Assembly: GCA_015063135.1 (NCBI GenBank)
Contig: SUTA01000007.1
Span: forward strand, 35,525-99,524
DNA length: 64,000 nt
DNA from: Thermoplasmata archaeon
GTDB taxonomy: Archaea; Thermoplasmatota; Thermoplasmata; Methanomassiliicoccales; Methanomethylophilaceae
Direction: 5' to 3'
Position numbers and translations under genes: made by a program. A model generated the notes under the pieces. That model was not told the DNA's origin and ran no database searches. It worked only from the letters and a program-made list of their open reading frames with translations. Positions 1 to 64,000 of this stretch are shown piece by piece; positions within the stretch are counted from its first letter, which is position 1, and the number at the start of each line of letters is the position of its first letter.

Positions 1-459
1 GTTGGCATCGCACATGGCGACGATCGGGATTCCCAGGTTCAGGGCCTCGTTGAGGGCCTGCTTGTCCGCGGAGGGGTCGGTGACGACCAGGACCTCGGGC
101 TCGATGAACACGGGGTTCGCGGGGTTGGTGAGGGTACCGGGGACGAAACGGCCGGCGAACGCGGGGGCGCCGATAGCCTTGGAGAACTCCCTGGCGGGCT
201 TCTGGCCGTACTGCCTGGCGGAGACGACGAGGACCCTCTTGGGGTCGTAGCGGGCGAGGAACGCGGCGGCGGCCCTGATCCTCTCGTCGGTCTTCTTGAC
301 GTCCAGGACGTACAGTCCGTCCTGCCTGACCTTGTAGATGAAGTCCTTCATGTCGGCGGATTTCTGCTGGGTTCCGATGTGGACACCGGAGGTGAGGTAG
401 ATGTCCTCGGCGACGAGCAGGTCTGCGCCTATGGTCGTTTCAAATTCTTCTTCTGCCAT
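1..459 (-). CDS. rps2: 30S ribosomal protein S2, archaeal (C-terminus cut by window edge)
   Basis: Small-subunit ribosomal protein. From the ATG at 459 the protein begins [20 protein letters not shown] and carries the S2 signatures [22 protein letters not shown] and FVPGTLTNP. About 152 residues are visible; the C-terminus lies off the left edge. It follows rpoK on the same strand after 11 nt, an archaeal rpoK-rps2 arrangement, so the two are probably co-transcribed. Confidence 0.95.
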
Positions 460-470
460 TGTGATTCCTC

Positions 471-641
471 TCAGTTCTTGACGACGGTGATCGGGACGAG
501 GTCCTGTGCGAACTCCAGCTCGGCGATGTCGATCGGGTCGAGCATGTCCTCAGGATAATCTACCAGGACAGGGGCTCCGTAGGAGATCTGCAGTGCCCTG
601 GATCCGATGATCCTAGCTTTCTCAAACCTAGTGTACTTCAT
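471..641 (-). CDS. rpoK: DNA-directed RNA polymerase subunit K
   Basis: A 56-residue archaeal/eukaryotic-type RNA polymerase subunit (Rpb6/omega equivalent). The family core [26 protein letters not shown] is nearly the whole protein. ATG at 641, TGA stop at 471-473. A GGTGA ribosome-binding motif precedes the start, and an AT-rich TATA-like box lies at 681-690. It leads the short rpoK-rps2 unit. Confidence 0.95.
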
Positions 642-680
642 ATGAGTCACCGTTCCAATGGGTTCCCGCTAACCTCACCT

Positions 681-690
681 TATTAATAAA
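681..690 (-). promoter_or_regulatory. TATA-like box for rpoK-rps2
   Basis: TTTATTAATA read on the minus strand, centred about 44 nt before the rpoK ATG, which implies a short leader of roughly 17 nt with an SD motif. Prediction from sequence only. Confidence 0.45.
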
Positions 691-804
691 CATTTCCCGC
701 CCTACCTTATTTTGTCTGTTAGTTAAAACCTCAACAAACGCGCGCGCGAGGGATAACGGTGTTAATCCGCCATGTTTTTCTATCCGTGGGAGCATGGGCC
801 CCGT

Positions 805-1305
805 ATGTCCGAGAAGCTCAGGGAATGCGCAGCGGCCTTCTTCCGCGCCACAGGCAAGGACGTCACGACAGCGGACGGCTTCGTCATGGGCATCTCCCTG
901 GAGCTCAAGTGGATGCCGCCCTCCGATGCAAAACGCCTGCTGGCACTCATGGTCAAGGCCGGTGTCCTGGAGCAGCGCGACGGGTACGTGAGGCCTGCCT
1001 CGGACCTCAGCGGGATGGACGTCCCCATGGCGTACCGCCCCGCTCCGACGATCCTCGAGGAGCCCGTTCCGGCGCCCGCCCCTGCGAAGAAGGAGGCGCC
1101 CGCCGACATGTTCCATGTCCTGATGGATGCGGCCGTCTCCGCTGGGATGGAGCGCAAGGACTTCGTGCAGGGATCCAACAGGATATCGCGCGACCTGAAC
1201 ATCGACATAGCCGCGGCTGCCCTGATAGTCCTGAGGGACAACGGGATCGAGGCATCGTCCTACGTGGACGATGTGTACAACTCGATCCTGATCGCTCCTT
1301 CCTGA
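805..1305 (+). CDS. DUF2240 family protein
   Basis: 166-residue archaeal protein of unknown function. The N-terminal part (ECAAAFFRATGKDV, LELKWMPPSDAKRLL, VKAGVLEQRDGYVRP) has the look of the DUF2240 family, in which a conserved helical/winged region precedes a proline-rich linker and a C-terminal helical segment. An ATG at 772 would add 11 residues; I prefer 805 because the family homology starts there. TGA stop at 1303-1305. It converges on aMBF1 with a 14 nt overlap. Confidence 0.7.
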   Translation: MSEKLRECAAAFFRATGKDVTTADGFVMGISLELKWMPPSDAKRLLALMVKAGVLEQRDGYVRPASDLSGMDVPMAYRPAPTILEEPVPAPAPAKKEAPADMFHVLMDAAVSAGMERKDFVQGSNRISRDLNIDIAAAALIVLRDNGIEASSYVDDVYNSILIAPS

Positions 1306-1783: not shown

Positions 1784-1805
1784 GAATCCACCCAAGTTTG
1801 TGCAC

Positions 1806-1815
1806 GTATAAATAC
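1806..1815 (-). promoter_or_regulatory. TATA box for aMBF1 (leaderless)
   Basis: GTATTTATAC on the minus strand, centred 27-28 nt before the aMBF1 ATG at 1783. That spacing is the archaeal TATA-to-start distance, so the start codon should be at or next to the 5' end of the mRNA. Confidence 0.55.
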
Positions 1816-1858
1816 GCAACCACGCGCCAGCATGCGCGCCGAGGTTACGCGCGAACGA

Positions 1859-1868: not shown

Positions 1869-1888
1869 AGACCTATCATCCCCACGTT

Positions 1889-9415: not shown

Positions 9416-9577
9416 ATGTCTCTGATGGGAACATTGGCGCGCGGTACGCTGAAACGCGCCGATGCAGAGGAAGCCTCAGGGGAGGAGGCGGAGTACGAGA
9501 TGGTGGATTTGGAGCTGGCACAGGGCTCCGAGGTCACCATCTTCATCCCGGCGGAGGGGCCCATATTCGGGCTCCGA
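9416..9577 (+). CDS. Small acidic protein, unknown function
   Basis: 53 residues if it ends at CGA (9575-9577); a TGA follows three codons later. Starts MSLMGTLARGTLKRADAEEA and is acidic in the middle. A TATA box at suitable distance and regular codon use support it as a gene; no family recognised. It lies between purS (divergent) and radA. Confidence 0.5.
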
Positions 9578-10695: not shown

Positions 10696-11681
10696 AATAT
10701 TTCTTCGAGCTCTCGGGCGAGTCCAAGGACATGCCGCCCGCCGAGATCGCAGGCTGCCTCAGAGCCGAGGCCGACCAGTACGAGATCGTCGCCGAGGGGC
10801 CGGGCTATCTGATAGCATCGTTCGATTCGCAGTTCTTCCCCGGGGTGGCCGAAAGGCTCGCAATGACCCATTCTTGCGGCCGCTACCTCGGTGCCTACGA
10901 CCCGGACGACCTCTCGGGCCTCGAGAACGCTGAGCTCCCGCCTGGAACATTCGCCATCCGCGCCAAGCGCTACAAGGGTATGATGAAGGATGTGGACTCC
11001 CAGGGGCTAATCCGCCGCATCGGAGGGGTGCTCTCTGTCCACAACGATGTCAATCTGAAGGAGCCGGACACAGTTGTGAGGCTCCAGATGTGCGACCGGG
11101 CCCACGTCTACATCGAGGAGCACGTCACGGAGACCGACCTCCTGGAGAAGCGCAAGGTTGGCGAGAGGCCCTTCTTCTCTCCGATCTCCCTGCATCCGAA
11201 GTATGCCAGGGCGCTCATCAATCTCACCGGGGTGAAGCGCGGCGGGACCGTCCTGGACCCGTTCTGCGGCACCGGGGGCATCGTGATCGAGGCGGCCGAG
11301 ATGGGCATGAAGGCCATGGCCTCTGACTTCGACGAGGAGATGGTCATAGGGTGCCGCGAGAACATGGACTTCTATGGTCTGGCACTTCACGATTTCGATG
11401 TCCTCGACATCGGCGACATCGGTGACAGGTTCCATGATGTGGATGCCATCTGCACCGACCCGCCCTACGGCCGGTCCACCAAGACCGGAGGGGAGGAGAT
11501 CGCCGAGATCTACCGCCGCGCGGGGGATGCCTTCCCGAGGTCCCTCAAACCCGGATGCCGTGCGGGCGTCGTGCTGCCGTTCGCCATGGAGTTCCCCACC
11601 ATGGAGCTCGAGGGGATGTACCTTCAGAGGGTCCACGGCTCGCTTTCGCGGCATTATCACGTGTTCCGCGCGCTCGAGCGA
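10686..11681 (+). CDS. tRNA (guanine10-N2)-methyltransferase-like, TrmG10 type
   Basis: 331 residues. An N-terminal THUMP-like region (QYFFELSGESKDMPPAEI) is followed by a Rossmann methyltransferase with SAM motif VLDPFCGTGGIVIEAA and catalytic motif TDPPYGRS. GTG start at 10686, chosen because the family begins at YFFELSGE. The protein ends HVFRALE then CGA (11679-11681); the next bases are the AT-rich promoter of the GGGP synthase gene. Standard-code reading would extend through that promoter to a TAA. Confidence 0.85.
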
Positions 11682-12485: not shown

Positions 12486-12845
12486 ATGTCCTACGACGAG
12501 CGCCCCTCGTACAATACGCCCATCTCCCCCAGGGCCCCCATGTGGCTGACCCCCGAGGAGAGGGCCGCAGGCATCACCAAGGACCTCAAGGTCGCCGCGC
12601 GCAGGTTCCTGTGCCCTAACTGCGGTCACGAGTTCAGTCTGTTCCAGTCTAGGGCCGTCGCCTGCAAGGCGTGCCCGAAGGCGAACCAGAACTGCCCGTA
12701 CGTCAGGTGCCCCTACTGCGACAACGAGTATCCTCTCCAGGGATTCATCGTCCCGGACAACAAGCAGGATGCCGTCCACATGAATAATTACGCGGACGGA
12801 GTGTTCAACCACTGGCAGGACAGCTACGGCAACAATCGCAGGCGA
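12486..12845 (+). CDS. Zinc-ribbon protein, unknown function
   Basis: 119 residues ending at CGA (12843-12845). Several Cys pairs (FLCPNCGHEF, ACKACPKANQNC, VRCPYCDNEYPL) suggest two zinc ribbons. ATG 12486 follows the GGGP synthase stop by 1 nt, so it is likely co-transcribed. One base separates its CGA from the CGA of the convergent ATPase gene. Confidence 0.7.
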
Positions 12846-12846: not shown

Positions 12847-14484
12847 TCGCTTCCTCTGGATGCAGAGCATCTGAGGGTGCCTGTTCAGGAATGCTGCCAC
12901 ATCTAGGTCCCTGACCTGCGAGTGCCACATCCCAGTGGCGGAGTCCTTCGCTTCATCCTGGGCCTTCACGATGCCGATGGCCTCGGTGACCACCTGCAGG
13001 AGCGTGCGGGAGCCGTCCATCAGCTCCCTGGCAACCGCGATGATGTCGGCTATCGTGCGCGCCTGGCTCATGTCGTAAATCGCGGCCACGGGCGCGTTGA
13101 CCTGATAGGTCCCGATCTCGATGGACCTTACGGAGGACGCGGTGACGCTGACCTCCTTCCTGCCCTTCTCGTAGCTGATGCCCTTGGACACGGGGTACCT
13201 GTCCTTCGGGATCGAGAATTCGAAATCCCTCTCGGTTTTCTGCACATCGGCCTTCCTGACGCTGAAGCCGTCCATGACGACCACTGTGTCGGCGGATCTC
13301 GCAACCTCGGGGTCCCCGGACACGATGAAGGTGGCCACCGTGGCGGATGCGAGGGCGGGTCCGGCCTCGGTCAGGGGGACCATGGCGCCGGAATCATCCA
13401 TGAAGCCCCTCCTGAGGGTCTCGGGGGAGACGTACTCTTCGTCTATTATGAGCAGCTTGGAGGTGAGCTCGATGTACTCCGACATCGAGACGTACTCGGA
13501 ATGGCAGCCGCACAGGGATGCGGCCTTGGCCGCCGAGGCCTCCCCGAATTCGGGGGAGTCCTTCAGGAACATCGAAACGTCCACGGAATCGGCCGGGCGG
13601 CCGGACTCCGAGACCACGAACGAGGCGCAGGGGAAGGAGATGACGTACTCCCTGCCGTCTCCGGGGATGTGGTTGTAAGGCCCGGCGGCTATGGCATCGG
13701 CCAGTGTGGACCTCCCGCTCCTCGGGGCTCCGAGGACGACGTTCATGTGCCTCTTCACGCCCCATCCCGCGATGGGGTCCCCGTTGGGGACATCGAAGGT
13801 GACCTTTAGGGAATCGTCGCAATGGAACGGCACTGCCCCGCTCATGGGCGCCAGCTCGTCCTCCCTGCGGGGCAGGACGGAGCCGTCGGCGACGAACGCC
13901 ACCAGGCCCCTCTCTTTGAGGTGGCTCCTGATGAACTCCGCGTTCTCGGCGGTCTGGATGTGGTTGTACAGCTTGGACTGCTTGTACGAGGGGTAGATCA
14001 TCGATTCCCCGACGACGCATTTGATCCTGACGTAGATGAGCTCCTCCATCGCCGCGGCGGACACCTTCCCGCCGGCGGACGGGAGGTCGGCGGTGAACCT
14101 GGCCTCCACATAGTAGGGGGTGATGACGACCGACCACCTCTCCAGGATCTCCTGGCCCGGGCGGGGGATGAACAGCTCCCCTCCGTCGGTCTTGGGTATC
14201 GGCGACCTGGCATACGTCCTGCATGCCTCCCAGAAGCGCCTGGCTATGAGGTCCCTGAGAGCGATCTCCCTGACCTTGGTGCTGTAAGTGTCCTCCGGGA
14301 ACATCGCCCTCTTCATGGGGACGCGGACGCGCATGGCCGTGTGGCCGGCGCGGTCATTCTGGATGTCGTCGAAGAAAAGCTCGAAATCCTCCAGGACGAA
14401 GCTGTTCTGGAGGTTCTTGTACTTGGCGAACGGCTTCCCGTCCGCATTCCTCAGGGTCCCCTTCAGGACCTCTTCGGATGCCAT
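12847..14484 (-). CDS. Predicted ATPase of the ABC class (COG3044-like) with altered Walker A
   Basis: 545 residues. Family landmarks: GLVAFVADGSVLPRRED, YNHIPGDGREYVI and the Walker B LLIIDEE. The P-loop reads GAPRSGRST, with Arg (AGG codon) in place of the catalytic Lys. The C-terminal AAFLNRHPQML corresponds to the family's conserved ending and is followed shortly by CGA (12847-12849). Biochemical role unknown. It is preceded by the gene at 14493 with an SD-like GAGGTGG. The Lys-to-Arg change may leave it unable to hydrolyse ATP. Confidence 0.78.
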
Positions 14485-14492: not shown

Positions 14493-14873
14493 TCGGCGGT
14501 ACTTGCTGTACTTGTCGAGGAGCCTGCAGATCCTGTCGTACTCGTCCTTGCTGAGGTCGCCGGACTCGACGAAGGTCTTGGCGAAGTCCTTGGCATCCCT
14601 GGTGGAGACGCGGGACGCCTTGGCGATGATAGATGCGAGGAAGGACGACGCCTTCGACGGGTCCATGGACGATGCGCTCAGGATCTCGTTCATGTCGTAC
14701 TTGAACGGGTTGATCTTGTGGGTGTTGAGCATCGCCTGCTTCTTCGTGGATTCCTTGGTCCTGACCGGCTTGTTCTTCTTCGCGCCGGCCTTGTCCCCGC
14801 CGTATTGGGAGGACGCAACGGGCGTTTTCACAACGACCTTGTTCGTCCTCGTCGTGGTTGTCTTCTCAGGCAA
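14493..14873 (-). CDS. Small basic protein paired with the ABC-class ATPase
   Basis: 126 residues ending DKYSKYR then CGA (14493-14495). Lys/Thr-rich N-terminal tail (TTTTRTNKVVVKT), then a helical region (ASSFLASIIAKASRVSTRDAK). No family recognised. I use a TTG start at 14873, preceded by GGAG 8 nt upstream, because the TATA box at 14909-14918 puts the transcript start near 14887. The ATPase ATG lies 8 nt after the CGA, inside a short operon. Confidence 0.6.
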
Positions 14874-14992: not shown

Positions 14993-16186
14993 ATGGGAGA
15001 GGACCAGACCATCGGGGACAGTCGCCGCCCGGCCATGGAGCGCGGATTGACCCAGCAGGCATTCGCTGTTTACATCGTCCTGCTGGCCGCCTCGTGTATA
15101 GCCCTGATCCTCGCATCGTACTTCAGGCAGATAGGGGACCTCATCCTGATCATCCCGATGATAATCCTGCAGCTGGCGGCGATCGTCACCGACAGGCAGG
15201 AGGTCCACGTCCCCCCGCTCATCATCGTCCTGATGGTGGCCACGTTCTTCCTGTCATTCCTGGGGCTGGGATTCCGCAACATGGACCAGGTGGGATTCAT
15301 AGCCAGCATCCTCCAGGGCGTTAATCTGATGATGATCGGCCTGGTGGTCCTCTACGCCCTGATGAAGGGGCATCCCTCGTCCATGAACAGCCCGATGGTC
15401 ATATTCATCTCGGAGTGCGTCGCCATCGCCATATTCACCATCATGAAGGTGGTGCAGTACTACGTCTCGGAGTACTGGGACCCCATGAGCCCCGTGGCCA
15501 TCGACCGCCTCATGGAGGAGATGCTGGGGGTCTTCCTCGGGTCCCTGCTCATCGGGATACTGTTCCTCTTCGAAAAGACCCAGAGGCAGTTCGAGTATCT
15601 CCTGAACACCTTCATGCGCGGCACGAAGGAGAGGGGCAACGAGATCGCACCCAGCGAGGTCTTGAAGCAGGAGGCGCTGCGCCTCATGCGCGAGGGCGAG
15701 TCCGGGAAGGTCGAGTTCAAGTCCACCATGAGAGTGAACTTGGAGACGAAGGAGAGGGACAAGAGGATGGAGAAGGCCGTCCTGAAGACCTTGGTCGCCT
15801 ATCTGAACACCGACGGCGGCGTTCTGCTGGTCGGCGTCGACGATGAGGGGAACCCCAGGGGGCTGGAGGAGGACAACTTCGAGAACATCGACAAGATGAA
15901 TCTCCACCTCACCCACATGATCACCAATGCCATCGGCGACGAGTTCCTGCCCTATATCTGGTTCACCGTCCTCGACTTCGACGGCAAGCAGGTCGTCATG
16001 ATCAGCTGCGACAAGTGCAGAAAGCCGGTGTTCTACAGGGAGGGCAAGACCGAGGAGTTCTATGTGCGCTCCGGGCCTTCCAGCATCGTCCTGACCGGCA
16101 AGAGCCTGGTCAACTACGTGAGCAACAGGTCCAAGAAGGCCAGGACCAAGATCCTGGACGAGGCCAGGCTCGAGGGTCTGCAGCGA
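14993..16186 (+). CDS. Membrane protein with C-terminal AlbA_2 (Schlafen-type) domain
   Basis: 397 residues. About five or six transmembrane helices fill residues 20-195, followed by a cytoplasmic AlbA_2 domain: GESGKVEFKSTM, LVAYLNTDGGVLLVGVDDEG, ISCDKCRKPVF and EEFYVRSGPSS. This domain is linked to nucleic-acid binding or cleavage and to regulators, often with helicase domains; fusion to a membrane anchor is less common. It ends RLEGLQ then CGA (16184-16186), and a T-rich run follows immediately. Function unknown. Confidence 0.75.
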
Positions 16187-16564: not shown

Positions 16565-16650
16565 TGGTGCGGGGAAGGGGATTCGAACCCCTGAATCGCT
16601 AAGAACAGGATCTTAAGTCCTGCGCCTTTGGCCAGCTCGGCTACCCCCGC
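16565..16650 (-). tRNA. tRNA-Leu, anticodon UAA, with encoded CCA
   Basis: Reads GCGGGGGTAGCC... with a class II variable arm. The anticodon stem-loop CAGGACTTAAGATCCTG gives UAA, the T arm has GGGGTTCGAATCCCC, and a 7-bp acceptor stem is followed by A and a genomically encoded CCA (16565-16567). It decodes UUA/UUG leucine. Confidence 0.95.
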
Positions 16651-16712: not shown

Positions 16713-17108
16713 ATGGCCTACAGGATTCCGACGGAGGAGCAGGTGGCGGACGCCATAGCGGATGTGATGTCCAGGCAGCCCCATGTGCGCTCCCAGAGGG
16801 AGTTGGTCATGCTGGTCTCCACGGAGTTGATGTGCGACGACCAGGACTACCGCATAGGCGCCGCCAGGATCCGCAGGGTCGGTGTGAGGAACGCGCTCTT
16901 CGATGTAACGATAAGCTACGCCCACGACAGCCGCGGGATGTCCAGCATCACATGCCCGGTGTGCGGGGGCAGCCTGGAATCGGTGATGAATCGCACCCTG
17001 GACGGCGGATGCATCGAGCTGAGGAGGGTCTGCGAGGACTGCGGCTACAGGGCCGACCCCGGTAGCGCCCGCCCCAGCAGGTACGTGTTCGACAGGAGGC
17101 TCAGGCGA
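16713..17108 (+). CDS. Zinc-ribbon protein, unknown function
   Basis: 131 residues ending YVFDRRLR then CGA (17106-17108). Two Cys pairs (ITCPVCGG and VCEDCGYR) indicate a C-terminal zinc ribbon; the N-terminal half looks helical (PTEEQVADAIADVM, HVRSQRELVMLV). The CGA overlaps the ATG of the next gene as CGATG, the same geometry as the TGATG overlaps in the fpo operon. A TATA-like GATTAAA lies near 16675. Confidence 0.65.
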
Positions 17109-17359
17109 TGTCCGAGAGGGCCGACAAGCTCAGGGAGGCGGAGGAGCTGCTAAACCGCGCGGCCGACCTCATGGACGAGGCCCTGAGGATGTCCGGCATG
17201 GAATCGCGCTCCGGGGACGACTCGGAGACCATCAGGAGGATAGCCTCCTCGGACAGCTACGGCGGGTCGCTCCGCAACATAGCCAGGGACATGGATTACC
17301 AGGAGGAGGAACAGCCCTGCTGGACCCAGCCCCTCACATCCCCCAAGAACCAGTTCCGA
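17108..17359 (+). CDS. Small hypothetical protein translationally coupled to the zinc-ribbon gene
   Basis: 83 residues, helical N-terminus (ADKLREAEELLNRAADLMDEA), then a Ser/Arg-rich region. Ends PKNQF then CGA (17357-17359), one base before the CGA of the convergent dehydrogenase. No family recognised. Confidence 0.55.
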
Positions 17360-46818: not shown

Positions 46819-47694
46819 ATGGATGGGAATGCAAGGATAGACGAGCTGGAGCAGCACCTGCTGTTCCACAGGGCCCTCGCGGACGATGCGGAGTCCTATG
46901 AGAAAATCGGGGGATACATGGACATCCTGGCCCAGGCAGGGTCCGGGGAGCGCCTGCAGGACCCTGTGGACGAGTCGATACGCTCTGTCTTCAGCCTGGT
47001 GCTGGAGAACGGCATCGACCCGTGGGAGATCGACTTGGCGGAGTTCGTCAGGATGTACGAGCGCAAGGTCGCCGCCGACAGCTTCGACATGATCGTGGCT
47101 GGGAAGCTCATGCTGATGGCATGGAAGATCCTCAGGCTGCAGAGCCAGAGCACCCGCGACAGGTCCGAGCCCCCCGCGGTCGATGAGCTGCCGGAGGACT
47201 TCGACGACTCGTTCTTCTACGACGATGACCAGCTGGTCGTCCCCGAGGTGCAGTTCAGGGAGGCGTACAGGAGGGAGCCTATCCGCCCCGTCACCATGTA
47301 CGAGCTCATCGATGCATTCGAGGAGGCTCGCGAGGAGATGGAGGTCGCCCGCGAGAGGGAGCGCATACGCGCCGAGCTCAGGGCGAGGCAGCCCAAGGCC
47401 AGGTTCGACAACAAGGCCCACGAGGAGGATGACGAGAGGGACGTGGAGGCCGTGTGGGAGAGGATCTCCCGCCTCGGCGCCGGACCAATCGCCCTGGAGG
47501 ACCTGTACGGCGAGACCCTGAAGGAGAACCTCACCGTGTTCGTGTCCGTGCTCCACCTGGTCAGGGACGGCCGCCTGGACATCTGGCAGGAGTTCCTCCC
47601 CGACGGGCAGGTGTTCGTGGAGATCAAGACCGACTCCATCACCGGCAGGGTCGAGGACGACGGCGGCCGCCGCACACCCGAAGCGGTGATCCGA
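46819..47694 (+). CDS. scpA: Segregation and condensation protein A (kleisin)
   Basis: 291 residues; bridges the SMC heads. PWEIDLAEFVRMYERKV and FDMIVAGKLMLMAWKILRL are typical kleisin N-terminal elements; the C-terminal winged-helix LTVFVSVLHLVRDGRLDIWQ binds the SMC head. It ends RRTPEAVI then CGA (47692-47694), and scpB starts 1 nt later. This ATC-CGA-G-ATG-G junction is identical to ATC-TGA-G-ATG-G between fpoL and fpoM except for the first stop base. Confidence 0.9.
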
Positions 47695-47695: not shown

Positions 47696-48214
47696 ATGGA
47701 CGCCAGGGGCGCAGTCGAGGCCGCGCTGTTCTCGGCGGCCGAGAACCTCAAGCTGTCCCAGATAGCGGAGAAGACAGGTCTCCCGGAGTCGGAGGTCAGG
47801 ACCGCCCTCATGGACCTCCGCAGGGAGTACGACCAGCGCGAGGGCGCCATAATCATCGCCAAGATCGGCACCGAGTACAGGATGATGCTCCGCCCGGAGT
47901 ACACCGAGTGCGCCACCGGGTTCGCCAAGGCCGAGATGCCGCCTGGGGTCATGAGGACCCTGAGCACCATAGCATACAACCAGCCGGTCCTCCAGTCGGA
48001 GCTGTTCAAGACCCGCGGCCCCCGCACGTACGACGACGTGCACAGGCTGGTGGAGATGGGCTTCGTCGCCGCCAAGCGCAGCGGCCAGACCATGGAGCTG
48101 ACGACCACAAAGAAGTTCTCAGACTACTTCGGCATCGGCAGCACCAGGAAGGCCGATATCAAGGCGTGGATAGAGTCCCAGATGGGCGCCGCGGCGGAAG
48201 AGCCCCAGAGCCGA
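47696..48214 (+). CDS. scpB: Segregation and condensation protein B
   Basis: 172 residues; two winged-helix domains. VEAALFSAAENLKLSQIAEKTG, LRPEYTECATGFAKAEMPPG, LSTIAYNQPVLQSEL and KKFSDYFGIGS. Ends EEPQS then CGA (48212-48214); the promoter of the next gene begins 16 nt later. Confidence 0.9.
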
Positions 48215-48349: not shown

Positions 48350-49696
48350 GTGTCCGCATCGCTTGGCGACGGATGGCTCAGGGGACGCTTCGGCACCGAG
48401 GTCACCGTCGAGATGGGCCTCCAGATAGGCAGGATAGCCGGGAGGCGCTACGGCGGTCCTGTGGCCGTCGCCTGCGACACCAGGCCGTCGGGCGAGGCGC
48501 TCACCAGCGCCGTGAAGGCCGGCATCATGGCATCCGGCCAGGACGTCATCGACATGGGCAGGCTGCCCACGTCGGCGCTCCAATACTACATAATGACCCA
48601 CGACGAGGTCGCAGGCGGGATAATGATAACCGCCTCGCACTCGCCGATGGACTACAATGGATTCAAGTTCATAGCCGCCTCGGGCAGGGATGACCCCGCC
48701 CTTGAGGGGATGACCGCCGAATCCATCATGGCCGAGACCGTCCCGACCGCGCCCTGGGAGAAGATAGGGGAGACGAGGGGCGTCAACGGCGAGCTGGAGA
48801 GGTACGTGGACGCCGTCGCGGGATGCGTAGACTCCGAGGCCATAATATCCAAGCATCTCAAGATCTGCGTGGACTGCGCCCGCGGTAACTGCCAGAGCAC
48901 GGTCACTATGCTGCTGAACAGGCTGGGCGTGGAGTACATCACCATGGATGGCAACGCCAGCGCCGAGGTCACAAGGCGCGATTCCGAGCTCTCCCCCGAG
49001 AACATGAAGGCCCTCGGGAATCTCACGTCCCATACCAAGAGCAACCTCGGCGTCGCGTTCGACATGGACGCCGACCGCTGCATGTTCGTGACCGGGAAGG
49101 GGAAGTTCGTCAGGGGCGACAAGAGCTTCTGCATCCTCGCCCGTAGCGTCCTGGACAAGAAGAAGGGGAAGGTGGTCACGTCCGTGGCATCCCCGAGCTC
49201 CATCGCCAAGTTCGTCGAGGCCAACGGAGGTCTCATCAAGCTCTGCGCCGTGGGCGCACCGACCGTCGTCCGCAAGGTGTCCGATTATGGGGCGGTTTTC
49301 GGCGGCGAGGTCAATGGCGGAAGCGTATTCCCCGATTTCCAGCCCTGCAGAGATGCAATACTGGCACTTGCCCGCATGCTCGAAGCCGTGGCGATCTATG
49401 GCCCTCTGGAGAAGCAGGCGGCGCAGATCCCCGATACCAATTACGTCATGGTAAACGTCTCGTGTCCCGACGAGAGGCGCCCGGAGGTAACCGCCAAGGT
49501 CAGGGATATCCTGTCCACGATGAACCCCGACGTCACAGATGGCTTCAAGGTGACCGAGGAGGACGGATGGTTCCTCATCAGGCTGTCCGATACCTGCCAC
49601 GTGATAAGGGTCTATGCCGAGTACGACGATGCCGAAAAGGCGGAGGCGAAGGCCAACGAGTACGCCGGCATCCTGAAGGATATGATCGGCGCCTGA
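48350..49696 (+). CDS. Phosphomannomutase/phosphoglucosamine mutase family
   Basis: 448 residues. Phosphoserine loop ITASHSPMDYNGFK, metal site AFDMDADRC and sugar loop FGGEVNGGSVFPDF; C-terminal phosphate-binding region WFLIRLSDT. GTG start with SD AGGAGG 9 nt upstream. Substrate (mannose, glucose or glucosamine phosphate) cannot be told. TGA stop; overlaps the convergent agmatinase by 11 nt. Confidence 0.88.
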   Translation: MSASLGDGWLRGRFGTEVTVEMGLQIGRIAGRRYGGPVAVACDTRPSGEALTSAVKAGIMASGQDVIDMGRLPTSALQYYIMTHDEVAGGIMITASHSPMDYNGFKFIAASGRDDPALEGMTAESIMAETVPTAPWEKIGETRGVNGELERYVDAVAGCVDSEAIISKHLKICVDCARGNCQSTVTMLLNRLGVEYITMDGNASAEVTRRDSELSPENMKALGNLTSHTKSNLGVAFDMDADRCMFVTGKGKFVRGDKSFCILARSVLDKKKGKVVTSVASPSSIAKFVEANGGLIKLCAVGAPTVVRKVSDYGAVFGGEVNGGSVFPDFQPCRDAILALARMLEAVAIYGPLEKQAAQIPDTNYVMVNVSCPDERRPEVTAKVRDILSTMNPDVTDGFKVTEEDGWFLIRLSDTCHVIRVYAEYDDAEKAEAKANEYAGILKDMIGA

Positions 49697-51153: not shown

Positions 51154-52245
51154 TCGGTGCCTGGGGCCCTTGCCCTTCCTGTTCCTCTTCTTCCCCTTAT
51201 CCTGGCTCTTGGGCTTCTTCGGGGGATCGGGATACCTCTTCTTGATGTCGGCCAGGCGGGCCTTGAACTGCCTGTTGAGCTCGTCGCCCATGAATTCTCC
51301 GCCGCAGGCGTCGATCTTCGCCGCGATGAGCACCTTCCCGGCCAGCGCCCTGGCGATCTTGCCGCTCTGCCAGTAGGGCGCCCTGTGGACGTCCGGGTGC
51401 TGGTAGAGCACGCCGTGCTTCGGCCCCTTCTTGCCGGTCCTCATGCTCCTGAACATGGCCTTCTCGGCCCCCAGGAGCTGGACGGTGGACGACGGGAGGG
51501 AGGCGAGCCTCTCCAGCCCCCCGGCGAGGGATATGAGCCTGGCGGCCAGGGGGCCGCCCAGCATGGCGCACATGTTGGGGCACGACGCCTCGACTATGGA
51601 TTGTATGTACTCCTCGGTGCGCTTCTTGTCGTCGTAGAGGCGGACGAGGGTGTCGGCCAGGTCCATGACCGCGCGCATGTCGTCGGGGTCGAAGTCCGCC
51701 CCGATGGAGACGATGTCGGCTCCGAGCTCCTCCATGACCGCCTCCCTCTCGCCGTACCTGGCGACAAGGTCGGCGTACCTCTCGTCCCTGGCCATGTCGG
51801 CCAGCTCGGGGAAGTGCATGCCGTACCACTCGTGGAGCCTCTCGCTGTACAGGTTGATCGTGGATATCTCGTCGTCGAGGTTGCGTATCGCCTGCACCAG
51901 GTTCCTGTCCCTGGCTATGGGCTCGGAGGTGCGCAGCTTGGCGAGGCCGATCATGGCCTCGTGCATGAACGCATCGGTGTAGCCGTAGTCCTCGGCCTTG
52001 ATGTGCGAGGAGTCGAACACCTCGGGCTTCCCGAGGGGCGACTGCCTCCTCTCGCCCACGGAGAGCTTGCCCTTGGCCCTCTCGGCCAGCACCCTCTCCT
52101 CATCTAGCACGCCGCCCTTCTGCATCATGGCCAGCTTCCCGGCGAGCTTGGCGGGGTCCTTCGGGAGCAGTATGGAATCGATTATCCTGCCGCTCTTCTC
52201 GTCGCAGAGGAAGACCCCGAACCATTTCGTGACAAGTACCGCCAT
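51154..52245 (-). CDS. nop5: Nop5 (C/D-box sRNP core protein)
   Basis: 363 residues; joins L7Ae and fibrillarin in 2'-O-methylation particles. The Nop domain contains CPNMCAMLGGPLAARLI, AEKAMFRSMRTGKKGPKHGVLYQHP and APYWQSGKIARALAGKVLIAAKID. The Lys-rich tail ends KGKGPRH then CGA (51154-51156). No fibrillarin gene is adjacent, which is unusual for archaea. Its ATG is 4 nt after the aldolase CGA. Confidence 0.92.
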
Positions 52246-52249: not shown

Positions 52250-52855
52250 TCGGATCTCCAGTATCCTCTTTATCTCTGCCTTGGGGAGGTCCTTGGCGTC
52301 CCCGGCCAGCAGCTGGAGCTTGGCTTGGAATTCCAGCTCCTCCATCCTGTTGTACGCCTCCTCCAGGGTCCTGCCCTGGGTGAGCGCGCCGTGCTTGGCC
52401 ATCAGCATGGCCTTGGATCCGTGGCAGGCGGCCACGGCGTCGACGAGGGCCTGCGACCCAGGGGTGCAGTACTTGACTGTGGGGACCTTGCCTAGGAGGA
52501 GGACCCCCTCGGGCGTCAGGTTGCTCCTGATGTCCTCGCCCTTCACTGCGAGCGCCGTGCAGTAGAGCGGGTGGCAGTGGACCACCGCCCCGGTCTCGGG
52601 CTCGAGGTTGTACAGCGCCAGGTGGAACTTGTGCTCGATGGAGGGCTTCCCGTCTGAGAGGACCTTGCCGTCCGTGCCCAGGAGGACCATGTCCTCCGGC
52701 TCCAGCAGGCCCTTGTTCCTGCCGGAAGGCGTGATGAGGACCTCTCCATCGTTGATCTTGACGCTCATGTTCCCGCCGGCGGACACCGTCAGCTGGCGGT
52801 CGTATAGCATGCGGCAGACGGCGGTCAGGCGCTCCCTGGCGTACCTCTCGATCAC
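52250..52855 (-). CDS. Class II aldolase (MtnB/fuculose-aldolase family)
   Basis: 201 residues; zinc aldolase. SAGGNMSVK, LITPSGRNKGLLEPEDM, VVHCHPLYCTALA with the HxH zinc ligands and LMAKHGALTQG. GTG start overlaps the mtnA stop (GTGA). Next to MtnA it is probably the aldolase of the DHAP shunt that salvages 5'-deoxy or 5-methylthio pentose phosphates (inference). Ends IKRILEI then CGA (52250-52252), followed by TACC and the Nop5 ATG. Confidence 0.85.
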
Positions 52856-53972: not shown

Positions 53973-54605
53973 TCGCCTGGCGGGCTCGAACGTCAGGAGG
54001 GCCCCGTTGCCGAGGACCTCGCAGTCCTTCAGCACAAGCTTCGCCCCTCCATCGACGACCCATCCGTCACCGTCGCAGGGGGTCGGGGCATCGGCGCCGC
54101 CGATGATCAGGCCGCCCACGAAGACGGTGTAGCGGTCCACGAGGCCCGCTTTGAAAAACTTGGATATGGTGACGCCGCCGCCCTCGACGATGACGTTCTC
54201 GATGCCGATCTCCTCGGCGAGGTACTCCATGACCGCGGGGAGGTCGATCTCGTCCTTGCCCATGCGGACGGTCTCCTCGCAGTCCCACTCCCTGTCGCAG
54301 CCCTCCAGCGTAACCATGACGGTTGGTGCGCGCTCGTCCAGTACCTGCGCCTCGTCTGGGGTCCTGCCGTGGGGGTCGAGGACGATCCTGATGGGGTTCG
54401 TGTCGTAATCGCCGTCCTTGAAGGTGAGGTGCGGGTCGTCGGCGATTATCGTGCCGACCCCCACGAGAATCGCATCGTACTTCCTCCTGAGCGCCTTGAC
54501 GCGGGTCTTGTCCTCGTCAGAGGATATCCTGACCTGCGTCCTGTCCGCGCCGGCGATCTTCCCGTCGGCGGACATGGCGCAGTTAACGTGGATGAACGGC
54601 CTCAT
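53973..54605 (-). CDS. arfC: 2,5-diamino-6-(ribosylamino)-4(3H)-pyrimidinone 5'-phosphate reductase
   Basis: 210 residues; RibD C-terminal-type reductase for riboflavin and F420 precursors. HVNCAMSADGKIAG at the start, YDAILVGVGTIIADDP, and VIVEGGGVTISKFFKAGLVD. Ends LLTFEPAR then CGA (53973-53975); about 15 more codons would follow under the standard code. ATG at 54605, overlapping the rtcA end by 23 nt. Confidence 0.85.
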
Positions 54606-57881: not shown

Positions 57882-58885
57882 GCAACATCCTGTACGTGCT
57901 CCTGGACGGGGCCGAGGACGATCCGAATCCGCAGCTCGGCGGCAAGAAGCCCGTCGAGATAGCCGAGATGCCCTACCTCTACGACAGGGCCAGGCATGCG
58001 TTCAGGACGACCGGTAGGGGCTACACGCACCTATTCCTCAACGAGTTCTTCACCGGCCACCCGCCGGAGGTCCCCAGGGGCGCCCTGGAGGCCCTGGGCC
58101 TGGGGCTCCCGATCATGGATCCCAAGCGCACGGCGTACAGGCTCAGCCCCGCCGAGATCGACGACGGCATGGTCAGGTGGTCGTACCACGCCTCGGAGTT
58201 CAGCGACGAGCTCCAGAGGGTCATGATGTCCCATATGGACATCTTCGAGGGCCGCGATCCCCAGATAAGGTTCTTCATCAACGGCAGGGCCGTCCTCACC
58301 ATGGAGTGCGACGACGTGCCCGAGACGCCCTCCCCGCCCGTGGACGCCCCGTGCGCGGAGATCCCAGGCGTCCTCGGCGAGTTCGTGAAGGCCGTGGCCG
58401 ACGACATGGGCGGCATAACCGATTATCCCTGGGGGTGCGGCAAGTTCGGGCACCAGTACCCGGCGCACCCCTGTTTCAACAACCTGACCGCGATCTCCGA
58501 CAGCCCCACCTCCCTGGGGGTCTGCGCATCGCTGGGCCAGAAGATCATGCTCATAGACGACCTGGACGAGCGCTTCCCGGCCGCCGTCAAGGCCCTGGAG
58601 CACGGCGACGTGTTCCTGCACATCGACGAGGTCGACGAGTACAGCCACCAGAAGGACCACGAGAAGAAGAAGTGGGTCCTGGAGCACACGGACAGGATGA
58701 TGGAGAAGCACTTCCCCGACGTGGAGAACGTGGTCTACTTCGCTGACCACGGCACCTCTTGCGTCACGGGGGAGCACATATTGACGGACGTCCCCGTCTG
58801 GACGTCCATAGACTGCGGGATCGCTCCCGGCACCATACACCCGCTGCCGGACCTGGTCCCTGATATAGCGAAGCACAAGAGGCGA
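57878..58885 (+). CDS. Alkaline phosphatase superfamily protein (iPGM/ApgM-like)
   Basis: 335 residues. VLLDGAEDDPNPQLGGKKP near the N-terminus, HIDEVDEYSHQKDHEKK with metal ligands, and YFADHGTSCVTGEHI. Resembles archaeal cofactor-independent phosphoglycerate mutase, though the divergence leaves room for another phosphotransfer role. It ends IAKHKR then CGA directly followed by TGA (58883-58888), a tandem stop. Confidence 0.75.
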
Positions 58886-60600: not shown

Positions 60601-60604
60601 GCTC

Positions 60605-61618: not shown

Positions 61619-62655
61619 ACGGACCACCCGAATATTCCCAGGAACGCGTTGATGATGTCGTAGGTGATGCCCTCGCACCGGACCTGGATCCAGCACCCGA
61701 GTATCGCGTATGCGATGAGGCACACGGTGAGTATGAAAATGACGGACGCGGTCTCCACCAGCTTCAGGCACCTGCGGACGTCGTCCGTGGTCGGAAGAGG
61801 CCCCTTGCCCATGACGTAGACTCCCTTCTTCTCCATGCTGATGCCCAGCGTGGCGGATACCGCAGTCATAGACCATCCGCTGTTGGGGCTGGGGGTCTTG
61901 GTGTGCTCCGCCTTGGCGGCTGGCACGGCTGCCCTCCAGTCCATCTTCAGCATCATGCCGGCGAGGGCCACGAAGTAGGGTGAGACCCTGGAGGTGGCGA
62001 ATCCCAGCACATCGTCGAACTTTGCGGGGAAGTACCCGAGCTTGGCGTACTTCTCGTTGAGGTAGCCCCACATGGCGTCCATGAGGTTGGCGCACCTGAA
62101 CATGACGGCCCCGGGCAGCCCCAGGAAGCCGAAGTAGGTCACGGGGGAGTAGACGGAGTCCACAAGGTTCTCCGATATGGTCTCGCAGCAGGAAGACGCG
62201 ATGTGCTCCGCATCCATTCCCTTGGTGTTCCTGCTGACGATCATCTGGACCTTGGCCGCGGCGTCCTCGACCCTCCCGGCGTCGAGGTCGTCGCATATGG
62301 GGATGCAGTGCTTCCTGAAGGAGAACACCGCGAAGGAGATCTTGAAGATGAACGCGGTGGCGATTATCCATGCGGCCTCTCCGACCAGGGGGTCGACGTG
62401 GGCGCCGATCACGATCCTGCATGTGGTCGTTATCAGCAGCCCGATCCCGGAGAACAGCAGGAATACCAGCAGGTACGACAGGAACCCGAGGACGGACGTG
62501 AACCTCGACGTCCTGTTCTTGATGCGCTTGTTGATGGCGTCCAGGATGTTCCCCATCCACCTCAGCGGGTGGAAAGCGTTGGGGACCTCCCCGACGAAGC
62601 GGTCGATGAGCAGCGCGAGGACGATGATAAGGACGGCATCGATCCACAGCTGCAT
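61615..62655 (-). CDS. cbiB: Adenosylcobinamide-phosphate synthase
   Basis: 346 residues, several transmembrane helices. DRFVGEVPNAFHPLRWMGN, SSCCETISENLVDSVYSPVTYF and AEHTKTPSPNSGWSMTAVSA are diagnostic. Attaches the aminopropanol phosphate made by CobD. TGA stop. Confidence 0.93.
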   Translation of the reverse strand: MQLWIDAVLIIVLALLIDRFVGEVPNAFHPLRWMGNILDAINKRIKNRTSRFTSVLGFLSYLLVFLLFSGIGLLITTTCRIVIGAHVDPLVGEAAWIIATAFIFKISFAVFSFRKHCIPICDDLDAGRVEDAAAKVQMIVSRNTKGMDAEHIASSCCETISENLVDSVYSPVTYFGFLGLPGAVMFRCANLMDAMWGYLNEKYAKLGYFPAKFDDVLGFATSRVSPYFVALAGMMLKMDWRAAVPAAKAEHTKTPSPNSGWSMTAVSATLGISMEKKGVYVMGKGPLPTTDDVRRCLKLVETASVIFILTVCLIAYAILGCWIQVRCEGITYDIINAFLGIFGWSV

Positions 62656-62661
62656 GGGGCA

Positions 62662-63771
62662 TCACCCGTTGAGTATGGAATCCACCGCGGCTATGAACCT
62701 GCAGTTGCGCTCCCTGTCCTTGACGCTGTACCTGACGTACGGTGCGAACTCCTCGCCGAACGAGGCGCAGTCCCTCACCATGATGCCGTGGCTCAGCATC
62801 CTCTTCTTGAAGTCGGAGCACACCATGCCCAGGGGCTCCAGCGAGTTGAAGTAGAAGAACGAGTCCGAGACCTCCCCCACGGGGAACCCGACCTCCTCCA
62901 GGGAGGAGTTCATGATCTCCGACTCCTCGGCCATCACCATGGCCGCGCGGTCGACGTAGTCCATCCTGTCCCTCAGGAGGACGTTGGCCACCGTCTGCTC
63001 GATCTGGCCCACGTTCCAGGTTATCCTGACCTTCTCCATCTCCTGGATGATGTCGGGGTTGGAGAACCCGAACCCTATGCGGATGCCGGGGATGGCGAAG
63101 CTCTTGGTCATGGATGACGCGACGACCAGGTTCGTGAACCTGTCGACCATCCCGGAGAGCGTGATGTCCACGTACCCGGGGACCAGCTCCAGGAGCGTCT
63201 CGTCCAGGAACACCAGGATTCCGCGGTCCTCGCACTCGCGAACGATGCTGATGACCTTGTCCCTGGGCTCCACCCTTCCGGTGGGGTTGTTGGGGTTGCA
63301 GATGTACATAGCCTTCACGCCGTCGGCCTCGAACATCAGGGAGTCCAGGTCGATGCGGAAGTCATCCTCGGGTCTCAGGTTGTTCCACATGATCTCCGCG
63401 CCGACGATCCTGCACTGCTGGGCGTACTCGGCGAAGGATGGGCGGTTGATGATCACTCTGTCCCCGGGGCGCATGAACGTGTTGGGGAAGTTGCGGATGA
63501 TGTCCGAGGATCCGGCCCCGATGGTGATGCAGTCGGGATCGAGGTTGAAGGTCTTGGAGATGGTGTCCTTGAGCTCCGCGCAGGAGTCGTCGGGGTAATG
63601 CCCGATGTCGGACACCGCCTGGGCGATGATCTCCCCCAGGTCCTCCGGGGGACCGAAGGGATTGAGGTTGTGGCTGTAGTCCTCGACGTTCTCGAGCTTC
63701 CACGCCTGCCCTCCGTGAACGGTGGACGGGAGGCCCTTGAGTTCGTCCCTCGGGAGTATGCGCCCTTTCAT
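62662..63771 (-). CDS. cobD: Threonine-phosphate decarboxylase (CobD) / HisC-like aminotransferase
   Basis: 369 residues; PLP enzyme making (R)-1-amino-2-propanol phosphate. NLNPFGPPEDL, NPNNPTGRV, and PLP Lys in SSMTKSFAIPGIRIGF. Placement before cbiB selects CobD over histidinol-phosphate aminotransferase. A TATA box at 63796-63803 predicts a leaderless start at 63771. TGA stop. Confidence 0.9.
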   Translation of the reverse strand: MKGRILPRDELKGLPSTVHGGQAWKLENVEDYSHNLNPFGPPEDLGEIIAQAVSDIGHYPDDSCAELKDTISKTFNLDPDCITIGAGSSDIIRNFPNTFMRPGDRVIINRPSFAEYAQQCRIVGAEIMWNNLRPEDDFRIDLDSLMFEADGVKAMYICNPNNPTGRVEPRDKVISIVRECEDRGILVFLDETLLELVPGYVDITLSGMVDRFTNLVVASSMTKSFAIPGIRIGFGFSNPDIIQEMEKVRITWNVGQIEQTVANVLLRDRMDYVDRAAMVMAEESEIMNSSLEEVGFPVGEVSDSFFYFNSLEPLGMVCSDFKKRMLSHGIMVRDCASFGEEFAPYVRYSVKDRERNCRFIAAVDSILNG

Positions 63772-63795
63772 TGGACACGGGCATTGCCTACTGCC

Positions 63796-63803
63796 GTATA
63801 TAT
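63796..63803 (-). promoter_or_regulatory. TATA box for the cobD-cbiB-cbiZ-cobY operon
   Basis: ATATATAC on the minus strand, centred about 28 nt before the cobD ATG. Confidence 0.55.
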
Positions 63804-63902
63804 CCGTAACTAGTCGCGCGCGCGGTGATTACAGAGGAACTGAACGTGCGGTCCGCTTTCGGGCACCTTTCCTTCCTGAATCTGCGGATTGTATAGGTTA
63901 CA

Positions 63903-64000
63903 TCAGGCCAGCACAATCTTGCCGCTCTTCGGTTCTTCCAGCCCGAAGAGTCTGAAGATCTCCCTCACATTCTTCGATACCGCGGTGAGTCTCCAATCAC
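63903..64000 (-). mobile_element. C-terminus of a transposase (IS1634/IS4-like), cut by window edge
   Basis: The last 31 residues include LTAVSKNVREIFRLFGLEEP before a TGA at 63903-63905. A short W-x-LT-x-(8)-REIF-x-(2)-FG ending is typical of IS1634-type transposases in methanogens, but too little is visible for certainty. An inverted terminal repeat, if present, should lie in 63810-63902. Confidence 0.45.

What the first reader, a model, noticed from the sequence alone, without database searches (positions are those of the whole stretch)
1..64000. CGA appears to be a stop codon in this genome
Seen directly: CGA is absent from the body of every gene I read (about 20,000 codons; SMC alone has 1196, PurL 775, HypF 720), although Arg is common (CGC, AGG, also CGT, CGG, AGA) and the CGA trinucleotide is frequent out of frame. 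In 25 genes the first in-frame CGA coincides with the expected protein end: first base of the codon in gene direction lies at aMBF1 1294(-), ribK 5800, 9575, TrmG10 11679, 12843, ATPase 12849(-), 14495(-), AlbA_2 16184, 17106, 17357, D-LDH 17363(-), kptA 20602, uppS 22328, proC 24053(-), gltB-like 24947(-), GGR 39160, nob1 39165(-), HAD 43008, scpA 47692, scpB 48212, agmatinase 49688(-), nop5 51156(-), aldolase 52252(-), arfC 53975(-), iPGM-like 58883. Promoters, hairpins, SD sites or the next ATG start within a few bases after it. Count: 41 TGA, 25 CGA, 4 TAA, 0 TAG. A base-calling artefact turning TGA into CGA would put CGA only at stops, but cannot explain the absence of native sense CGA, and out-of-frame TGA remains plentiful. 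Mechanisms to consider: a release factor accepting C at the first base with loss of tRNA-Arg(UCG); C-to-U editing of mRNA to UGA; an unassigned codon with rescue. I know of no described archaeal code like this.
Basis: partly seen in the sequence, partly recalled or inferred. Interest (0 to 1): 0.98.

Follow-up and report, generated by a model that had tools for sequence, protein, structure and literature searches.

The report
Archaeon using CGA as stop codon
In this archaeon, a relative of gut methanogens, the codon CGA, which means arginine elsewhere, stands at the ends of genes and is missing inside them, so it is likely read as a stop signal by a release factor that lacks a residue predicted to keep such codons out; it would be the first such switch known outside mitochondria and plastids.

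Summary
Confirmed. All 25 listed sites are CGA; a gene finder blind to CGA and to the stops recovers 23. In 808 kb of this genome CGA comes first at 244 of 573 gene ends and makes up 32 of 10,120 interior Arg codons, TGA's noise level. CGA-ended proteins stop where TGA/TAA-ended homologues stop (63 of 73). Of the anticodons found in a complete congener only Arg-UCG was not found here. New: the state spans the genus. Five congeners end 20-42% of sampled genes with CGA. All 25 congeneric aRF1 genes read (of 30 congeners) keep one in-frame CGA at the same Arg; this genome has CGC. It is nearly the only conserved sense CGA in the stretches sampled. Congeneric tRNA-Arg(UCG), found in 27 of 31 genomes, has an altered anticodon arm in every case; nine outgroup tRNAs are intact. 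aRF1 has Met in place of the Arg (human Arg68) that a published simulation credits with excluding C at codon position 1. Likely mechanism: relaxed aRF1 reads CGA; congeners use it to regulate aRF1; this species has lost tRNA and switch. No wet-lab proof.

The parts
1292..1294 (-).
   Evidence: CGA confirmed; CGA-blind segment ends at 0 codons
5800..5802 (+). CGA stop of CTP-dependent riboflavin kinase (ribK)
   Evidence: segment end offset -7 codons; NF010762 match ends at the CGA residue, 219
9575..9577 (+).
   Evidence: CGA confirmed; not recovered by the blind segmentation
11679..11681 (+). CGA stop of a TIGR01177-family methyltransferase (reader: TrmG10)
   Evidence: offset +13; profile 329 of 330 reached at residue 333, CGA is 339
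12843..12845 (+). CGA stop
   Evidence: offset +3
12847..12849 (-). CGA stop (reader: ATPase), convergent with the previous gene
   Evidence: offset -3
14493..14495 (-). CGA stop
   Evidence: offset +1
16184..16186 (+). CGA stop (reader: AlbA_2)
   Evidence: offset -3
17106..17108 (+). CGA stop
   Evidence: offset 0
17357..17359 (+). CGA stop
   Evidence: offset -3
17361..17363 (-). CGA stop (reader: D-LDH), convergent with the previous gene
   Evidence: offset +4
20602..20604 (+). CGA stop (reader: kptA)
   Evidence: offset 0
22328..22330 (+). CGA stop of uppS
   Evidence: offset 0; TIGR00055 228 of 228 reached at residue 255, CGA is 257; run-on homologues with Arg here
24051..24053 (-). CGA stop (reader: proC)
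   Evidence: offset +8
24945..24947 (-). CGA stop (reader: gltB-like)
   Evidence: CGA confirmed; inside a segment that merged two genes in one frame
39160..39162 (+). CGA stop of a geranylgeranyl reductase family protein
   Evidence: offset -1; profile ends well before CGA (288 against 359), so no help
39163..39165 (-). CGA stop of a nob1-like protein; together with the previous site the palindrome CGATCG
   Evidence: offset -1; NF009148 match ends at the CGA residue, 153
43008..43010 (+). CGA stop (reader: HAD)
   Evidence: offset -3
47692..47694 (+). CGA stop (reader: scpA)
   Evidence: offset +8; no family match
48212..48214 (+). CGA stop of scpB
   Evidence: offset -4; TIGR00281 match ends at 153, CGA is 175
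49686..49688 (-). CGA stop of agmatinase
   Evidence: offset +2; TIGR01230 274 of 275 reached at 282, CGA is 291
51154..51156 (-). CGA stop of a nop5/Nop56-like protein
   Evidence: offset -5; NF011121 match ends at 369, CGA is 372
52250..52252 (-). CGA stop (reader: aldolase)
   Evidence: offset -2
53973..53975 (-). CGA stop of the riboflavin-pathway reductase (arfC)
   Evidence: offset -1; TIGR00227 215 of 216 reached at 239, CGA is 243
58883..58885 (+). CGA stop (reader: iPGM-like)
   Evidence: offset 0

Best explanation
CGA stands at 244 of 573 sampled gene ends and is all but missing from gene interiors, so it is likely a true stop codon, most likely read by the cell's aRF1, which has Met in place of the arginine predicted to keep C out of codon position 1, while the tRNA-Arg(UCG) that would compete was not found in the genome. 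Shown from sequence: the codon distribution, the homologous C-termini, the tRNA set, Met at aRF1 residue 64 on this family's side (Arg in nearly all neighbours), an in-frame CGA at aRF1 Arg77 in every congener read but not here, and altered anticodon arms in every congeneric tRNA-Arg(UCG) found. Inferred order: (1) Arg64Met near the base of the family relaxed reading of the first codon base, so CGA, one base from UGA, became risky inside genes and rare; (2) in the genus, tRNA-Arg(UCG) was weakened, sense CGA was purged, and one CGA was kept in aRF1, where much aRF1 would stop its own synthesis and little aRF1 would let the weak tRNA read on (autoregulation); (3) TGA and CGA became interchangeable at gene ends by single transitions; (4) in this lineage codon 77 became CGC, tRNA-Arg(UCG) was lost, aRF1 gained Asn65-His66 next to the NIKS motif, and CGA rose to two fifths of stops. 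With pylS present and TAG at 2 of 573 ends, the likely code is stop = TGA, TAA, CGA, with TAG for pyrrolysine.
For: Ends TGA 292, CGA 244, TAA 35, TAG 2 of 573; interior CGA 32 of 10,120 Arg codons against TGA 37, TAA 10, TAG 18 inside. CGA 31 in frame against 2,728 and 13,019 out of frame. C-termini within 6 aa of TGA/TAA-ended homologues: CGA-ended 63 of 73 here and 38 of 49 in congeners; TGA-ended here 75 of 79; control, CGA-first ends in outgroups 2 of 6. Profiles end 0-9 residues before CGA in 7 of 10 window genes tested. Every anticodon found in the single-contig congener G014 is found here except Arg TCG. aRF1 itself ends with CGA. Residue 64: Met 119, Leu 1 of the 120 nearest proteins; Arg 116, Lys 3, Tyr 1 of the 120 nearest to an outgroup aRF1; human Arg68Ala computed to cut the penalty for C at position 1 from about 6 to 1-2 kcal/mol (PMC5681627, passages). 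aRF1 codon 77 CGA in 25 of 25 congeners read, CGC here. tRNA-Arg(UCG): 31:39 mismatch in 19 of 19 of one kind, C33 in the other kind (7 read, 1 by identity), intact in 9 of 9 outgroup tRNAs. Independent run-on proteins. One protein identical in G021 and G008 ends with CGA and TGA.
Against: No protein, RNA or biochemical data. Met64 is found on the whole family's side, while near-complete loss of sense CGA is genus-wide (and in G034), so it cannot be sufficient. The simulation treated human Arg68Ala, not an archaeal Met. NIKS and YxCxxxF are unchanged. Congeners with many CGA stops still carry tRNA-Arg(UCG), so their CGA would be ambiguous. The genome is 87.5% complete, and tRNA-Tyr was found in neither this genome nor G014, so the search can miss (probably intron-bearing) tRNAs. 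Only 73 of the 244 CGA-ended genes had a homologue to test, and 31 of the 32 interior CGAs had none spanning them. Autoregulation rests on conservation alone: CGT185 in aRF1 is also invariant (8 of 149 fourfold or sixfold sites are), and no RNA structure was supported.
Confidence: 0.72

Rival explanations
1. CGA is only unassigned: without tRNA-Arg(UCG) ribosomes stall on it, and a general rescue system (aPelota and partners) frees them at gene ends; aRF1 plays no special part.
For: tRNA-Arg(UCG) was not found. aPelota-like proteins are present in many relatives (weak second hits; identification by similarity to pelota chains).
Against: Congeners that still carry tRNA-Arg(UCG) also end genes with CGA (G021 29 of 83, G027 13 of 31). 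CGA is kept inside aRF1 itself, and residue 64 changed in aRF1. In-frame back-up stops are no commoner after CGA than after TGA.
Confidence: 0.12
2. C-to-U editing of mRNA turns CGA into UGA at gene ends, as in plant organelles, and the ribosome sees an ordinary stop.
For: CGA and TGA differ by one transition and replace each other between near-identical genes. Not excluded for site-specific editing.
Against: General editing of CGA would also change 2,728 NCG-A codons in the sample, which are only mildly fewer than expected (observed/expected 0.82), and editing at chosen sites does not explain the loss of sense CGA, the loss of the tRNA or the aRF1 changes.
Confidence: 0.06
3. Base-calling, assembly or binning artefact.
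For: The genome is a draft of 40 contigs.
Against: uppS run-on proteins with Arg at the stop place come from several sources at 82-98% identity; congeners from separate assemblies show the same pattern; sense CGA is lost as well.
Confidence: 0.01
4. The part on aRF1 only: the conserved CGA77 is a relic or serves something other than feedback (for example slow reading for folding).
For: CGT185 in aRF1 is invariant too, and 8 of 149 fourfold or sixfold sites are; no conserved RNA structure around it.
Against: Elsewhere in the sampled stretches of 20 congeners CGA is 29 of 12,592 interior Arg codons, most of them at joins of genes, so a neutral CGA should have drifted as neighbouring codons did; the 7 bases CTCGACT are invariant in the 22 sequences aligned.
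Confidence: 0.3

Closest known systems
Sense-to-stop reassignment in organelles: UCA/UCG in sphaeroplealean mitochondria (PMC6821328, passages), UUA/UCA in peDinoflagellate plastids (PMC12574857, passages), AGR in mitochondria (PMC4695839, passages)
   Same: A sense codon vanishes from gene interiors and appears at ends, the cognate tRNA is missing, and the release factor carries unusual changes.
   Different: Those are organelles with bacterial-type factors, and the codons begin with U or are AGR; here it is a cellular genome with an eRF1-type factor and a codon that begins with C. The 2025 paper calls the plastid case the first outside mitochondria.
CGA/CGG reassigned to other amino acids in bacteria found by Codetta (PMC8629427, passages)
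   Same: Rare Arg codons of the CGN box change meaning, with changes in tRNA genes.
   Different: Those genomes are AT-rich and the codon gains an amino acid; here GC is 59% in the sample and the codon becomes a stop. The screen lists no archaeal sense codon with another amino acid and chooses only among 20 amino acids.
prfB (RF2) autoregulation by an in-frame UGA in bacteria (PMC12421855, passages)
   Same: A release-factor gene carries, early in its reading frame, a codon that the factor itself would read as stop.
   Different: In prfB a frameshift passes the stop; here the frame is unbroken and a weak tRNA-Arg(UCG) would read through. Seen in congeners, lost in this species.
Pyrrolysine (TAG) coding in Methanomassiliicoccales
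   Same: Same order of archaea; pylS is present and TAG is almost absent as a stop (2 of 573).
   Different: That is stop-to-sense at TAG; the CGA change is sense-to-stop.

Membership tests
Sense-to-stop codon reassignment | Codon absent from conserved sense positions | tested here: met
   32 of 10,120 interior Arg codons, at TGA's noise level; none aligns to Arg in a homologue, though 31 of 32 had no spanning homologue
Sense-to-stop codon reassignment | Codon at the homologous C-terminus | tested here: met
   63 of 73 within 6 aa; 7 of 10 profiles end 0-9 residues before CGA
Sense-to-stop codon reassignment | Cognate tRNA lost | tested here: met
   Arg TCG is the only anticodon of G014 not found here; genome 87.5% complete. 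Not met in 27 of 31 genus genomes, which keep an altered tRNA
Sense-to-stop codon reassignment | Release factor reads the codon | not testable with these tools
   Only indirect: Met64, Asn65-His66 and CGA77 in congeners
Sense-to-stop codon reassignment | Protein ends before the codon (mass spectrometry) | not testable with these tools
   No proteome data
prfB-like autoregulation of a release factor | Conserved in-frame self-read stop early in the gene | tested here: met
   CGA at codon 77 in 25 of 25 congeners read; not met in this genome (CGC)
prfB-like autoregulation of a release factor | Programmed frameshift past the stop | tested here: not met
   The reading frame is continuous across codon 77, so it is not a member; it would work like one by read-through
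prfB-like autoregulation of a release factor | Read-through depends on factor level | not testable with these tools
   Needs a reporter
CGA reassigned to another amino acid | In-frame CGA aligned to one other residue in homologues | tested here: not met
   Of 32 interior CGAs here, 31 had no spanning homologue and one was spanned only by another CGA
Organelle-type C-to-U mRNA editing | mRNA differs from genome | not testable with these tools
   No RNA data; general editing is disfavoured by 2,728 NCG-A codons

The most novel reading that the evidence does not exclude
A living archaeal genus is caught in the act of turning a sense codon into a stop: loss of aRF1's first-base gatekeeper made CGA readable as stop, the genus uses the resulting contest between aRF1 and a crippled tRNA-Arg(UCG) at one CGA inside the aRF1 gene as a self-regulating switch, and this species has finished the change by dropping tRNA and switch and ending two fifths of its genes with CGA.
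Probability: 0.5. Interest if true: 0.98.

Novelty: new variant of a known kind. Interest (0 to 1): 0.95.

Why it matters
If true it is the first sense-to-stop change in a cellular, non-organellar genome that my searches could find, a stop codon that begins with C, and a natural test of how eRF1-type factors exclude C at the first position, which in the work I saw rests on structures and simulation. The genus gives a graded series (0 to 43% CGA stops; tRNA intact in outgroups, altered in congeners, not found here) in which codon-capture and ambiguous-intermediate models can be tested. Practically, gene callers run through CGA, so proteins of this lineage in public data carry false tails.

Tried and rejected
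Single-genome codon models trained on one or two 20-kb stretches locked on to the wrong strand for several relatives (visible as AGG-poor counts); those rows were discarded and redone with this genome's model and then with models re-trained from it. G031, G039 and G040 (AT-rich) gave no segments and are uninformative there. A first script for aRF1 found 1 of 38 loci and failed; one search replaced it. ARAGORN's 'Ser (cga) with intron' at L029 looks by eye like a Met (CAT) tRNA with an intron.

General mRNA editing is rejected as the main account. Back-up stops: canonical in-frame stops in the first 5 codons number 0.16 per gene after CGA and 0.22 after TGA, so no extra back-up after CGA. CAA avoidance as a second sign of relaxed first-base reading: CAA is low against AAA in most of the family (G014: CAA 6 of 668 CAR, AAA 74 of 1,314 AAR) but not clearly in G034; inconclusive. 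RNA structure at the aRF1 CGA: 26 predicted pairs, none with changes on both sides. CGA followed by C in aRF1 resembles a weak stop context (C is the rarest base after CGA ends, 27 of 244), but the Leu codon there confounds it.

Low CGA-end counts need care: in order-level outgroups (G036, G038, G047), where CGA is an ordinary Arg codon (66 of 1,129), 7 of 51 ends read CGA first, and in other genera of the family 11 of 239. So the few CGA ends of G014 (6 of 91), G030 (3 of 54) and G007 (3 of 67) are weak evidence; against TGA/TAA-ended homologues G009 has 3 of 3 and G007 1 of 2 within 6 aa, G014 and G030 none to test.

Literature: ten searches of an open-licence library, each listing its top 7 to 20 papers; none listed appeared, from title and start of abstract, to report CGA as a stop. 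I saw passages, not whole papers. Most subscription journals were not searchable.

Full report
Setting. The window is G000:C31:35525-99524 of a 1.86-Mb, 40-contig genome, 87.5% complete, 0.05% contaminated. Record titles of relatives (Methanomassiliicoccales, Candidatus Methanomethylophilaceae, many from ruminant guts) place it in that family. One congener (G028) has a contig of 96,203 bases, the length of a contig in the record titled UBA71, so the genus is probably that of UBA71 (inference). 31 genomes of the genus are held, this one included.

Observation. All 25 listed sites are in-frame CGA, and 23 are recovered by a gene finder blind to CGA and to the three stops. With 47 further stretches (808 kb in all, 43% of the genome) 619 coding segments of at least 80 codons give 193,625 interior codons, with CGA 32 of 10,120 Arg codons. 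TGA (37), TAA (10) and TAG (18) occur inside at the same order, which is the noise of joining neighbouring genes. At 573 ends the first of the four codons is TGA 292, CGA 244, TAA 35, TAG 2. None of the 32 interior CGAs aligns to Arg in a homogue among the fetched relatives, but 31 have no homologue spanning them and one is spanned by another CGA, so the weight lies on their rarity. Out of frame CGA is common (2,728 and 13,019 against 31 in frame). Rare control codons do not pile up at ends (19 to 40 of 619 against 185 for CGA; the common codons CGC and GGA 78 and 73).

C-termini. For CGA-ended proteins with TGA/TAA-ended homologues among the fetched relatives, the ends agree within 6 aa in 63 of 73 cases (TGA-ended: 75 of 79); for CGA-first ends of outgroups, where CGA is sense, in 2 of 6. 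Curated profiles, given ten window proteins read through CGA, end 0-9 residues before CGA in seven (ribK, TIGR01177, uppS, nob1-like, agmatinase, nop5-like, arfC); the scpA-like protein has no family, and the profiles of scpB and the GGR-like protein stop 22 and 71 residues earlier. Public proteins of this lineage run on through CGA. P0001, one residue from this aRF1, has 472 aa, exactly to the next standard stop (its source is not shown and it may be a very near genome). uppS homologues P0242-P0245 (82-98%; sources lgn, ENA, JGI, NCBI) and P0247 and P0250 (67 and 66%) carry Arg at the stop place followed by a tail, while most listed ones have 258-262 aa. This speaks against a local base-calling error.

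tRNA. Rfam finds 43 tRNAs. With ARAGORN on those loci, on all stretches and on the window, every isotype-anticodon found in G014, a single-contig congener, is found here except Arg TCG; Pro GGG was found here only, and Tyr in neither. Arg GCG, CCG, TCT and CCT are present. BLAST with two kinds of congeneric tRNA-Arg(UCG) finds the GCG tRNA as best hit here. Archaea do not read CGN with inosine-34 (recalled), so CGA would have no cognate tRNA.

Genus. CGA ends are not private: G027 13 of 31, G021 29 of 83, G026 6 of 19, G001 6 of 21, G029 4 of 20, G009 5 of 48, down to G028 0 of 34, G019 0 of 22 and G003 0 of 19; 83 of 653 ends in the 20 congeners sampled. CGA-ended proteins of congeners agree with homologues in 38 of 49 cases. 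In one case G021 and G008 encode an identical 167-aa protein that ends with CGA and TGA respectively. On an aRF1 tree the users lie on several branches. Interior CGA is 46 of 12,609 Arg codons in the congeners; 17 of the 46 are one codon, Arg77 of aRF1. Among the other 29 one (G005, L147, segment 11179-12420, codon 116) aligns mostly to Arg (13 of 19), one shared by G007 and G009 aligns to varied residues, and by eye the rest lie mostly at joins of neighbouring genes or in poorly conserved stretches. Other genera of the family hold CGA at 61 of 4,397 Arg codons, order-level outgroups at 66 of 1,129.

aRF1. This genome's aRF1 (409 aa) itself ends with CGA. NIKS and YxCxxxF are intact. Residue 64, human Arg68 by the alignment to 1dt9, is Met in 119 and Leu in 1 of the 120 nearest proteins listed, but Arg in 116, Lys in 3 and Tyr in 1 of the 120 nearest to an outgroup aRF1. 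A published simulation (PMC5681627, passages) finds that eRF1 rejects CAA, CAG and CGA by about 6 kcal/mol, largely through Lys63, that Arg68 holds the NIKS loop, and that Arg68Ala drops the penalty to 1-2 kcal/mol. So this family carries a change at the residue computed to guard the first base. This genome has Asn65-His66 where 118 of the 120 nearest proteins have Lys-Asn. At codon 77 all 25 congeners read have CGA; this genome has CGC; 12 outgroup rows (10 genomes) have AGA, AGG, CGC or CGG. Five congeners (G002, G004, G006, G017, G022) were not read there. The bases CTCGACT are invariant in the 22 sequences aligned.

tRNA-Arg(UCG) in the genus. It was found in 27 of 31 genomes. In 19 of 19 of one kind the 31:39 pair is broken (C-A or A-A), with 26:44 able to pair instead; the other kind, in 8 genomes of one clade (7 read, G019 by identity over 141 bases), has C33 in place of the near-universal U33 (recalled). 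Nine outgroup tRNAs have five full pairs and U33. It was not found in G000, G013, G016 and G017; the last three are 87, 88 and 66% complete. PMC13092985 (passages) ties weakened anticodon stems of other tRNAs to stop read-through, but at the top pair (27:43), so it is an analogy only.

Mechanism. The simplest reading is that aRF1 with a relaxed first-base check reads CGA, one base from UGA. Sense CGA became costly and was purged; the tRNA was weakened but kept, since at least one CGA must still be read; and aRF1's own CGA became a feedback switch. This species lost switch and tRNA together, as the model requires, and CGA rose to 43% of stops. Shown: distributions, conservation and the substitutions named. 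Inferred: their causal order, release at CGA by aRF1, autoregulation. Against: Met64 is family-wide while the near-complete loss of sense CGA is genus-wide (and in G034); the simulation concerned human Arg68Ala; no wet-lab data.

Known and new. Sense-to-stop changes are known in mitochondria and, by a 2025 paper that calls itself the first case outside mitochondria, in plastids; the codons named in the passages I saw begin with U or are AGR. The Codetta screen reported no archaeal sense codon with another amino acid and chooses only among 20 amino acids. None of the papers listed in ten searches appeared to report CGA as a stop. pylS is present and TAG ends 2 of 573 genes, so this organism likely departs from the standard code at two codons.

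Noticed in passing
L157:9393-10613 (G034, another genus of the family): CGA is only 2 of 1,183 interior Arg codons there, and one of the two is in aRF1 (codon 24, not 77); G033 has CGA at the same codon 24. A second, separate case of a CGA kept in aRF1 is possible.
   Followed up: partly
L118 (G031): aRF1 ends ...KVR with CGA as the last codon before TAG, as if CGA stood one codon before the stop.
   Followed up: no
aRF1 codon 185 in L093-L116 and L120: Arg185 is CGT in 25 of 25 congeners and here, although CGT is a rare Arg codon; it lies just after the GGQ motif.
   Followed up: no
L155:6608-7771 (G007) and L153:5198-6325 (G009): The same gene next to aRF1 holds an in-frame CGA at a shared place that aligns to varied residues elsewhere: a second conserved internal CGA, or a variable protein.
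   Followed up: no
L147:11179-12420 (G005), codon 116: Probable true sense CGA (Arg in 13 of 19 spanning homologues), so CGA may still be read as Arg in that congener.
   Followed up: no
G000:C18:72418-73092: pylS (267.8 bits, over the cut-off), with TAG nearly absent as a stop: pyrrolysine coding is likely.
   Followed up: partly
family-wide interior codons: CAA is scarcer than AAA in most family genomes but not clearly in G034, perhaps another trace of relaxed first-base reading (CAA against UAA).
   Followed up: partly
L058 and L064 (G000:C4): Two near-identical tRNA-Pro(TGG) genes lie on one small contig; one has a different 5' end that weakens its acceptor stem.
   Followed up: no
   Followed up: no
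window 16565-16650 (-): tRNA-Leu (TAA), the only tRNA in the window.
   Followed up: no
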